From the NCBI GenBank assembly GCA_028279865.1, contig JANQMV010000002.1, forward strand, positions 1 to 32,438: DNA of 32,438 nt, read 5' to 3'. Below are positions 1,285 through 4,113 of this stretch, in pieces (within the stretch, counting starts at the first letter, position 1; every line of letters starts with the position of its first letter). This DNA comes from Candidatus Altimarinota bacterium. Lineage in GTDB: Bacteria > Patescibacteriota > Gracilibacteria > JANQMV01. The notes below the pieces were generated by a model. The model was given only the letters and a program-made list of their open reading frames with translations, was not told the DNA's origin and made no database searches. A program made the position numbers and the translations under genes.

Positions 1285-1312
1285 TTGACAATTTTGTCAA
1301 GTTTGATATAAT
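1285..1312 (+). promoter_or_regulatory. Consensus sigma-70 type promoter
   Basis: A perfect -35 TTGACA (1285-1290) and a perfect -10 TATAAT (1307-1312) are separated by 16 nt on the plus strand. Both neighbouring protein genes (recG and the DUF3800 gene) are on the minus strand, so this promoter does not serve them. Transcription would start at about 1318, exactly where the structured RNA begins. Confidence 0.7.
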
Positions 1313-1317
1313 ATTAG

Positions 1318-1394
1318 CGGAATTGCTTCTGATTTGAAATGTGGTATCAATTGCCGCGTTCCTAATTTATTAGGATAGAATCAGAAGTTTTTTT
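1318..1394 (+). ncRNA. Candidate small structured RNA with intrinsic terminator
   Basis: The segment starts about 6 nt after a consensus -10 box and ends in a run of seven T (1388-1394). Stem pair 1 is GCGGAATTG (1317-1325) with CAATTGCCGC (1348-1357). Stem pair 2 is CTTCTGATT (1326-1334) with AATCAGAAG (1379-1387), which abuts the T run as a terminator stem. A small hairpin TCCTAA/TTAGGA lies at 1360-1375. Stems 1 and 2 interleave, so they are alternative folds or a pseudoknot. The T run overlaps the 3' end of the converging DUF3800 gene. No long ORF is present. I do not recognise the family. Confidence 0.55.
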
Positions 1395-2019
1395 ATTTAG
1401 GCCAAACCTGTACATACATTTCTCTGGAAGAAATAATGTCACGATATTTTTTGCTATTTTTACGTTTAGTAAACATTGATCGGTTAATAGAGCCAACAAC
1501 ATAATCAGCTAGTTGCAACAAATTATTGCTAGTCGATCTTTGCATCTTTATTTTCTTAATGATTTTACGTTCACTCTTATTTATCCTCGCCTTTAAATAA
1601 CGTGCAAGTTGCCTTCTAAAATCATTGTTACCACTTTTATCAATAACAATAATTGAATTATCCAGTTTTTCTTTTGCATTTTCAAAGACAAGACTACAAG
1701 AATATTTATAAAACGATTTTTTATCTTTAAAGCCTTCACCCCACAATTGTGACTTATTCATTACAATACCATAATAAAAAAAGTTATAAGGTAATACTGC
1801 TTTCAAAAAAGCCTCTCTCACTCGATCCGAATTATTTTTAAAATGAAACTCATCTTGCGCTTTCCAATTCAATTCCCTTCTTAAAAGTGTGATTCTTTGG
1901 TCACAAGCCACTGCCTCTTCATGATCTTCAAAAATAACAAGCCCTACTGTAAAAAATTTACTTGCGCCTTGATTAATTTTCAAACCAGGATCACCTGATT
2001 CATCAATAAAAACCAACAT
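1393..2019 (-). CDS. DUF3800 domain protein
   Basis: A 208-residue protein that begins MLVFIDESGDPGL and ends with a conserved LLQLADYVVGSINR segment. These are the two hallmark patches of DUF3800, a family with an acidic N-terminal DESGD motif often suggested to be RNase H-like; the activity is not established. It starts at ATG 2019, close downstream of nadA in the same direction (27 nt gap), and is followed by the sRNA region and recG. DUF3800 proteins are common accessory genes, often near mobile DNA or defence loci, but nothing else here indicates a defence island. Confidence 0.8.
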   Translation of the reverse strand: MLVFIDESGDPGLKINQGASKFFTVGLVIFEDHEEAVACDQRITLLRRELNWKAQDEFHFKNNSDRVREAFLKAVLPYNFFYYGIVMNKSQLWGEGFKDKKSFYKYSCSLVFENAKEKLDNSIIVIDKSGNNDFRRQLARYLKARINKSERKIIKKIKMQRSTSNNLLQLADYVVGSINRSMFTKRKNSKKYRDIISSREMYVQVWPK

Positions 2020-3183: not shown

Positions 3184-4113
3184 TTATTCTATAGTTTTTT
3201 CAACAACAGTCTCTTTCGGCCTCACCACAACTCTAAATCCATAAATTTTGCCAATATATCCCGTATCTTCAAAATTTTGTTTTTCACAACTTGTTCTACC
3301 GAGATTACGCGCCCCAAAAGACCAATCCGCTCCGGACATGTGTCCAATTGCCGAAGTCCAAATAAAAGTATCTGTTTCATCATAATTAAAAGCATCTCCC
3401 TCCTCAGTTCCGCACGCTTCGATAAACTCCCAAGGCGTTGGCAAATGTGAATTTGCCTCAAATTGCTCATTCGCTGCTTTCCACGACCAAGTTTGTTCCT
3501 GAGTATGTACACCGTAAAAACTACACTGCTCATCAAGTCCCGGTTCTCCATCTTTTTGATCAAATTGCCCGCGATAGTCTCCGCTCAAGTAACAATTGCG
3601 CTTATTCACTTCATCTTGCTGCCAAGTCGGCACAAATCCTCCCGCATCTTCAAAAGAGCTAAAATCAAGGTCTTTCACTCCATCAACACAATCTGCAATA
3701 GCAAGTGCTGTCGGATGTAATAAATCTCGCCCTTCATCCAGCATTTTTACTAAATCCTCCCATTGAAACTTTGAGGTCAAGTCCATGCGTTTTTGCAAAG
3801 TATCAGATTTTTCATTAACCACACATTCAAAATCCACAAAAGCATAAGTCGTTCCATATTCAGGAGTGGGATTATCTCTTGTGCGTGGAGTTACATCATT
3901 ACCATGTGAAAAAAACTCTCCATAACCGTTCCAGGTATACATCCCTTTTCCGTCAGATAATTCCTTGGAAACACATGCTCGGATATCGCTGCTCCATTTC
4001 CAGCCTTCCATCAAATTACATGTCTCCTGAGACAGCCAAGGTTTGTCCGAACCAATCAAAGAACACGCGGAAATAAGAGTAGTTGTGAGTAAGAGTAAAA
4101 ATATTTTTTTCAT
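3184..4113 (-). CDS. Lipoprotein with C-terminal FGE/DUF1566-like module
   Basis: A 309-residue protein with a lipoprotein signal peptide: KK, a hydrophobic stretch, then the lipobox LISAC with the acylated Cys at residue 17. The C-terminal third carries LPTPWEFIEAC, FIWTSA and YGFRVVVRP, the pattern of the C-type-lectin-like fold of formylglycine-generating-enzyme/DUF1566 (Lcl) proteins. These are usually non-enzymatic in this context. Several cysteines in the exported part could form disulfides. It probably sits on the outer face of the membrane. It lies between priA and nadA on the same strand, with repeat-filled gaps on both sides. The specific role is unknown. Confidence 0.7.
   Translation of the reverse strand: MKKIFLLLLTTTLISACSLIGSDKPWLSQETCNLMEGWKWSSDIRACVSKELSDGKGMYTWNGYGEFFSHGNDVTPRTRDNPTPEYGTTYAFVDFECVVNEKSDTLQKRMDLTSKFQWEDLVKMLDEGRDLLHPTALAIADCVDGVKDLDFSSFEDAGGFVPTWQQDEVNKRNCYLSGDYRGQFDQKDGEPGLDEQCSFYGVHTQEQTWSWKAANEQFEANSHLPTPWEFIEACGTEEGDAFNYDETDTFIWTSAIGHMSGADWSFGARNLGRTSCEKQNFEDTGYIGKIYGFRVVVRPKETVVEKTIE

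What the first reader, a model, noticed from the sequence alone, without database searches (positions are those of the whole stretch)
1285..1394. Unannotated small RNA with a perfect promoter and terminator
A TTGACA-16-TATAAT promoter leads into about 76 nt with two interleaved stems (1317-1325/1348-1357 and 1326-1334/1379-1387), an inner hairpin and a T7 tract, on the strand opposite to both neighbours. It is the best promoter I see in the window. Interleaved stems point to a pseudoknot or to two exclusive folds.
Basis: partly seen in the sequence, partly recalled or inferred. Interest (0 to 1): 0.6.

Follow-up and report, generated by a model that had tools for sequence, protein, structure and literature searches.

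The report
Partner RNA of a DUF3800 nuclease
The sequence holds a real small RNA of a known but unexplained family, read tail-to-tail against the gene of a nuclease-like protein; in related bacteria the RNA and the gene travel together as one small unit, which suggests that the RNA binds and controls the protein.

Summary
In detail: TTGACA-16-TATAAT (1285-1312), a ~76-nt transcript and a T7 tract, opposite to both neighbours. It is not a new RNA: Rfam places 1325-1392 + in DUF3800-IX (RF02968, 46.9 bits, cut-off 36.8). The gene tail-to-tail with it (1393-2019 -) is DUF3800, predicted to fold like RNase HII. Found here: in 80 loci picked by protein alone, the RNA faces DUF3800 in 77 by covariance score (one below cut-off), 2 more by eye, 1 without. 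Promoter and 5' leader (GGAAUU or ACAAA, outside the Rfam model) are conserved. RNA and protein distances correlate (r 0.78). DNA similarity between loci is confined to the gene-RNA unit, and 13 of 69 loci carry flanking repeats, several of them duplicated, recoded ends of a neighbouring gene. Of 25 RNA loci, 5 lack the gene. Best reading: a mobile two-part unit in which the RNA binds and restrains an RNase-H-like effector, antitoxin-like. The RNA gene is near certain; the restraint is inferred. New member of a known kind.

The parts
1285..1312 (+). promoter of the RNA: -35 TTGACA 1285-1290, TG 1304-1305, -10 TATAAT 1307-1312
   Evidence: same elements at the same distance in relatives
1319..1324 (+). 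conserved 5' leader GGAATT, inferred transcription start at 1319-1320; not part of the Rfam model
   Evidence: alignment of 69 loci; start inferred from the -10, not mapped
1325..1392 (+). DUF3800-IX RNA (RF02968), three-way junction: P1 1325-1335/1378-1388, P2 1339-1346/1352-1359, P3 1360-1365/1370-1375
   Evidence: covariation
1378..1394 (+). 3' strand of P1 followed by T7 (1388-1394): terminator-like end
   Evidence: sequence; termination not tested
1393..2019 (-). DUF3800 gene, 208 aa, RNase-HII-like predicted fold; stop codon overlaps the last two T of the RNA's T tract

Best explanation
The segment is a DUF3800-IX RNA gene and forms one unit with the DUF3800 gene that it faces tail-to-tail. 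The RNA is made from its own strong promoter, folds into a three-way junction closed by the helix that also ends the transcript, and is bound by the DUF3800 protein, an RNase-HII-like nuclease. Binding keeps the nuclease in check until the short RNA is lost or displaced (for example when transcription is shut off during phage infection); the freed enzyme then acts as the effector of a selfish or defensive toxin-antitoxin-like module that spreads between phyla as a ~0.8-kb unit. Shown: RNA family, structure, linkage, orientation, promoter conservation, co-divergence of RNA and protein, exchange of the unit between unrelated flanks. Inferred: transcription itself, direct binding, inhibition, toxicity, defence.
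For: Rfam match 46.9 bits. Of 80 loci found by protein alone, RNA tail-to-tail with the gene in 74 by model R1, 2 more over the Rfam cut-off, 1 below it, 2 by eye, 1 without. Covariation: 19 of 23 pairs change on both sides, 85.9% of cells paired against 34-55% for slid partners. Conserved promoter: 48 of 69 with 5 or 6 of 6 at the -10, shuffles mean 20.3, max 30. RNA and protein distances, Mantel r 0.78, n 58, 0 of 2000 permutations as high within each leader type; leader type changes once on the protein tree. RNA without gene 5 of 25, gene without RNA 1 of 80, p 0.003. RNase HII fold, Z 12.6, with D6 and D172 invariant, E57 and D127 at 90% or more. Unit moves. In L063 the neighbouring cassette holds a PemK toxin and the same right end. 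Precedent for an RNA that neutralises a toxin by direct binding: AbiF-RCd22 (PMC12373285, abstract and passages).
Against: No expression, binding or toxicity data. The RNA sits in one copy, downstream and convergent, unlike ToxIN/AbiF. The RNA-only count and the gene-only count come from different samples, and the protein query was built from RNA-linked genes. The small transcript of the PemK cassette folds no better than shuffles. Three other DUF3800 plasmid loci show no Rfam RNA. Activation by the RNA fits the same anatomy.
Confidence: 0.5

Rival explanations
1. The RNA is a required cofactor (scaffold or guide) that activates the DUF3800 nuclease as a ribonucleoprotein, as omega RNAs do for IscB and TnpB.
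For: Constant pairing and co-divergence fit any RNP. RNase-H-superfamily fold (an IsrB-omega RNA structure is also in that list at Z 6.0). DUF3800 accompanies some class 2 CRISPR systems (PMC10910872, PMC12669027, passages).
Against: No guide-like match of the RNA to its own flanks: 5 of 67 with 10 or more nt against 2.0 with swapped flanks. RNA found without the gene in 5 of 25.
Confidence: 0.25
2. The RNA is a cis-antisense or transcription-interference element that limits the DUF3800 mRNA from its 3' end.
For: Convergent, usually within a few nt of the stop, sometimes overlapping the coding end; own strong promoter.
Against: Antisense action needs no conserved fold with compensating changes and invariant unpaired letters; overlap with the coding sequence is absent or short.
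Confidence: 0.12
3. Independent regulatory pseudoknot RNA or leader that has to do with recG, as the first reader's stems and its proposed recG survey suggest.
For: The complementary letters exist at 1317-1325/1348-1357; the promoter lies next to the recG-like start.
Against: -7.6 against -26.0 kcal/mol; the stem is not conserved; in relatives the constant neighbour is DUF3800 and the rest of the flanks differ.
Confidence: 0.03

Closest known systems
DUF3800-IX RNA, Rfam RF02968 (recalled as first described by Weinberg et al. 2017, NAR 45:10811; that paper is not held and was not read)
   Same: Sequence, three-way junction, neighbour DUF3800 gene
   Different: Nothing in kind; conserved promoter and 5' leader lie outside the Rfam model
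Type III toxin-antitoxin systems (ToxIN) and AbiF-RCd22 (PMC12373285)
   Same: Structured RNA paired with a toxic-protein candidate, transferred as a pair; proposed inhibition by direct binding
   Different: Single RNA without repeats, convergent and downstream, own promoter; RNase-HII-like protein
IscB/IsrB/TnpB with omega RNA
   Same: RNase-H-superfamily protein with an adjoining structured RNA in a mobile unit
   Different: No guide found; nearest fold is RNase HII; RNA on the strand opposite to the gene
Retrons with a DUF3800 effector (type VII, recalled; PADLOC profile DUF3800_VII matches weakly)
   Same: DUF3800 protein tied to a structured RNA
   Different: No reverse transcriptase recurs in the flanks held

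Membership tests
DUF3800-IX RNA (RF02968) | Covariance score over the gathering cut-off | tested here: met
   46.9 bits against 36.8, full model 1-67
DUF3800-IX RNA (RF02968) | Three-way junction with covarying helices | tested here: met
   MFE fold; 85.9% of cells paired, 19 of 23 pairs with changes on both sides over 74 distinct sequences
DUF3800-IX RNA (RF02968) | Lies beside a DUF3800 gene | tested here: met
   PF12686 E 9.8e-16 at 1393-2019 -
DUF3800-IX RNA (RF02968) | Transcribed as a separate small RNA | not testable with these tools
   Only a conserved promoter and a terminator-like end; no RNA-seq
Type III toxin-antitoxin | Tandem RNA repeats upstream of, and co-transcribed with, the toxin gene | tested here: not met
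   One RNA, downstream of the gene and on the opposite strand
Type III toxin-antitoxin | ToxN-like toxin fold | tested here: inconclusive
   Best matches are RNase HII/H2; absence of ToxN from such a list is no proof
Type III toxin-antitoxin | RNA binds and neutralises the protein | not testable with these tools
   Inferred from pairing and co-divergence only
IscB/TnpB-omega RNA | RNA carries a guide that matches the element's flank or target | tested here: inconclusive
   5 of 67 with matches of 10 or more nt against 2.0 expected from swapped flanks
Retron | Reverse transcriptase gene in the unit | tested here: not met
   No partner gene recurs in the flanks held, largest neighbour cluster 6 of 80 loci; in the window the unit is flanked by nadA and the recG-like frame
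Integron gene cassette | attC site and integrase | not tested
   Repeats found are gene ends, not compared with attC models

The most novel reading that the evidence does not exclude
DUF3800 with its DUF3800-IX RNA is a minimal mobile toxin-antitoxin-like module of a new layout: an RNase-HII-like toxin and a convergent three-way-junction RNA antitoxin with its own promoter. It spreads across phyla as a ~0.8-1.0-kb cassette without an integrase of its own that enters at the ends of host genes, bringing a recoded copy of the gene end, and can sit in arrays beside other single-gene cassettes such as PemK.
Probability: 0.3. Interest if true: 0.75.

Novelty: new member of a known kind. Interest (0 to 1): 0.5.

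Why it matters
The DUF3800 RNAs appear without a function in the papers I could search and read (the founding paper is not held). The anatomy found here turns them into a directly testable protein-RNA pair, and it points to small cassettes that settle at gene ends in ultra-small and other bacteria with no integrase inside the unit.

Tried and rejected
Pseudoknot 1317-1325/1348-1357: rejected. A leader GGAA / junction UUCC pseudoknot: both present in 31 and both absent in 31 of 74 sequences, 12 break the rule, and leader type changes only once on the tree, so not claimed. Guide hypothesis: no clear support. Conserved third gene: none. Solved relatives by sequence: 0 at E up to 1. Phage records: no match to the protein. 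Plasmid records: 20 with distant DUF3800, under 60% identity; three of them read, no Rfam RNA at E up to 0.1, so the pairing is not shown for DUF3800 in general. pemK RNA (RF02913): 0 of 379 genomes, and nothing rang in the controls, so it shows nothing. Viral contigs: of 8 loci, RNA over the Rfam cut-off in L109, L114, L116; weak hits of 12-13 bits at the expected place in L110-L113; L115 none there. The cassette literature search was seen as a listing only.

Rows dropped: six partly matched RNAs from the promoter table (68 of 74 plus the window used); proteins under 190 aa from tree and distances; RNAs from the Mantel test, because alignment A3 holds only; loci with runs of N (L049) from the repeat count; the contig-edge pair L024/L027 from the RNA-first count; loci read under code 25 from the flank scan (130 frames). 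In one search one repeat (L033) was read in a wrong frame; corrected, where L063 was left out. Frames there were chosen from the gene whose end is duplicated (and by inspection of the codons for L041).

Full report
WHAT IS THERE. The promoter, the ~76-nt transcript and the T tract are as described; the promoter is the only one with 11 or more of 12 consensus matches in the window. Rfam gives one match in the 32-kb window: DUF3800-IX RNA at 1325-1392 +, 46.9 bits against a cut-off of 36.8. The gene facing it, 1393-2019 -, is DUF3800 (PF12686, E 9.8e-16); its stop codon overlaps the T tract. On the other side the recG-like frame starts at 1259 on the minus strand. It is the only copy found in the 1.48-Mb genome (completeness 95.8%).

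HOW WIDESPREAD. RF02968 over its cut-off: 5 of 99 relatives, 11 of 353 genomes of the class, 16 of 379 sampled from the phylum; each set includes the window's genome. Several class members appear to read TGA as glycine; the DUF3800 genes of L006, L010, L011 and L012 are open only under code 25. The pattern is sporadic.

PAIRING. A profile of nine DUF3800 proteins found 80 loci in named bacterial genomes of many phyla. A covariance model built from 25 RNAs with their leaders finds the RNA in 74 of the 80. Rfam adds L084 and L087 and, below its cut-off, L081 at 34.6 bits. L088 and L107 show the same elements by eye (sequence; 11-13 bits at the right place). L089, on a long branch, has none. In every scored case the RNA is on the strand opposite to DUF3800 at its 3' end; median distance from the stop 4 nt, with two broken or misread genes, L099 and L074, at 206 and 411 nt included. 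The converse: of 27 RNA hits (two at one contig junction set aside), 20 of 25 face a DUF3800 gene; L003, L018 and L022 have none within the flanks held, L007 and L028 are second RNAs upstream of a gene that has its own. G025 and G035, two species of one genus, share the RNA block at 94% while one has DUF3800 beside it and the other an unrelated frame.

TRANSCRIPT. Aligned on the leader, 69 loci show a -35 and a TG-n-TATAAT -10 in otherwise little conserved sequence; 48 of 69 have at least 5 of 6 matches to TATAAT in the last 20 nt, shuffles 20.3 on average and 30 at most. The commonest gap from -10 to leader is 6 nt, so the leader is the inferred 5' end. Two leader types exist, GGAAUU (the window's) and ACAAA; they change once on the protein tree.

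STRUCTURE AND CO-DIVERGENCE. In 74 distinct sequences 85.9% of cells pair, against 34-55% when the partner column is slid, and 19 of 23 pairs show changes on both sides (the alignment was fitted to the model, so the figures lean towards it; the number of such pairs is not above shuffles, the number of cells and the score are). Protein and RNA distances correlate at r 0.78 over 58 loci, and within each leader type at 0.62 and 0.67. Descent of linked genes gives such a correlation by itself; what it shows is that the two parts have not been reshuffled.

PROTEIN. AlphaFold2 on a 65-sequence alignment gives pLDDT 94.3. The best folds are RNase HII and H2 (Z 12.6, rmsd 2.7, 156 residues; Foldseek E 2.6e-4). 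D6, G9 and D172 are invariant, E57 and D127 at least 90% conserved. That these are catalytic is inference; I could not superpose active sites. quotes a report of an RNase H fold 'with a catalytic rearrangement' for a DUF3800 domain. PADLOC profiles PDC-M04A, PDC-S51 and DUF3800_VII match, the best at E 5e-13 and for the window's protein 1.8e-10, 0.0009 and 0.001. I recall DUF3800 as an effector of type VII retrons; no call shows it (one search found no paper with both words).

MOBILITY. The protein tree mixes phyla: 24 labels need 31 changes (least possible 23), though labels are still clustered (shuffled mean 42.4), so transfer is likely but the tree alone is no proof. Stronger: in 16 of 17 close pairs DNA similarity stops just outside gene + RNA + promoter (L097/L098 share longer flanks; in the pairs with L072 and L087 the left side is cut by the contig). 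Local alignment of the two flanks of one unit gives direct repeats of score 18 or more in 13 of 69 loci; swapped flanks predict 0.5, other placements in the same loci 0.36 (570 placements). The enclosed stretch is 768-1087 nt. Six of the repeats lie in a reading frame at a gene end (the 3' end of an amino-acid-kinase/PUA gene in L051, of a transglycosylase-like gene in L108, of an ABC-transporter gene in L033, the start of recX in L082, two unnamed in L041 and L080), and the two copies differ in 24 synonymous and 10 replaced codons, against 18.6% synonymous expected at random and at most 42% in 5000 draws. L108 alone goes the other way (0 and 2). So in most of them both copies evolved as coding sequence, which fits a unit that brings its own version of the gene end, as prophage e14 does at icd (recalled). 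In G515, a genus mate of the L082 genome, recX is uninterrupted; the same question for L058 reached only its own genome. In L033, L058 and L063 the repeat occurs three times and encloses a second cassette: RhuM/Fic-like in L058, PemK toxin in L063, unknown in L033. The two L063 cassettes share a 98% identical 99-nt right end, which includes the promoter region, but the short transcript of the PemK cassette folds no better than shuffles. The window's own unit shows no such repeat (score 12, within chance), so mobility of this copy is inferred from relatives.

FLANKS. Of 130 nearest flanking frames, up to 4 match type IIG restriction models and 3 type III methyltransferases, and 7 match ResIII in Pfam. 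Suggestive of defence islands, but without a background control. No partner gene recurs: most clusters printed are frames antisense to DUF3800 itself, and the largest other one covers 6 of 80 loci.

MECHANISM. A nuclease-like protein always beside one small structured RNA, transferred as a pair, the RNA able to outlive the gene but hardly the reverse (5 of 25 against 1 of 80, p 0.003, with different sampling on the two sides): this is most simply a protein restrained by its RNA. The same anatomy would fit an RNA-activated enzyme, to which I give a quarter. The experiments listed separate them.

WHAT IS KNOWN. The family and a refined structure are in Rfam and in print (passages), and association of DUF3800 with putative ncRNAs is stated in PMC10910872 (passage). 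The founding 2017 paper is not held and was not read, so whether it already notes the convergent layout I cannot say. In the held library 11 papers name DUF3800; of these I read passages of four, none of which gives the RNA a function; the rest were seen only as a listing.

Noticed in passing
L033 1842-3881, L058 2932-4954, L063 2876-4841: Arrays of single-gene cassettes of about 0.9-1.1 kb separated by copies of a repeat (in L033 the 3' end of an ABC-transporter gene); DUF3800 + RNA is one cassette, others hold RhuM/Fic-like, PemK and unknown proteins.
   Followed up: partly
L063 3726-3824 and 4690-4788: The DUF3800-RNA cassette and the PemK cassette share a 99-nt right end, 98% identical, which includes the RNA promoter region; the PemK gene is followed by a short convergent T-tract transcript candidate that is not unusually stable.
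   Followed up: partly
L003 and L004 (genomes G035, G025): Two species of one genus share a 138-nt RNA block at 94%; one has DUF3800 beside it plus a second RNA upstream, the other an unrelated frame instead.
   Followed up: partly
L088 2480-2562 +: sRNA-Xcc1 (RF02221, 74.5 bits) lies upstream of a DUF3800 gene in a Legionellales bin.
   Followed up: no
L006, L010, L011, L012: DUF3800 genes of some relatives in the window's class hold in-frame TGA codons where others have glycine and are open only under code 25; the window's genes read normally under table 11.
   Followed up: partly
L110-L113, about 3620-3715, minus strand: On viral contigs, more distant DUF3800 genes have weak RNA matches (12-13 bits) at the expected place and strand, perhaps a diverged subtype.
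   Followed up: no
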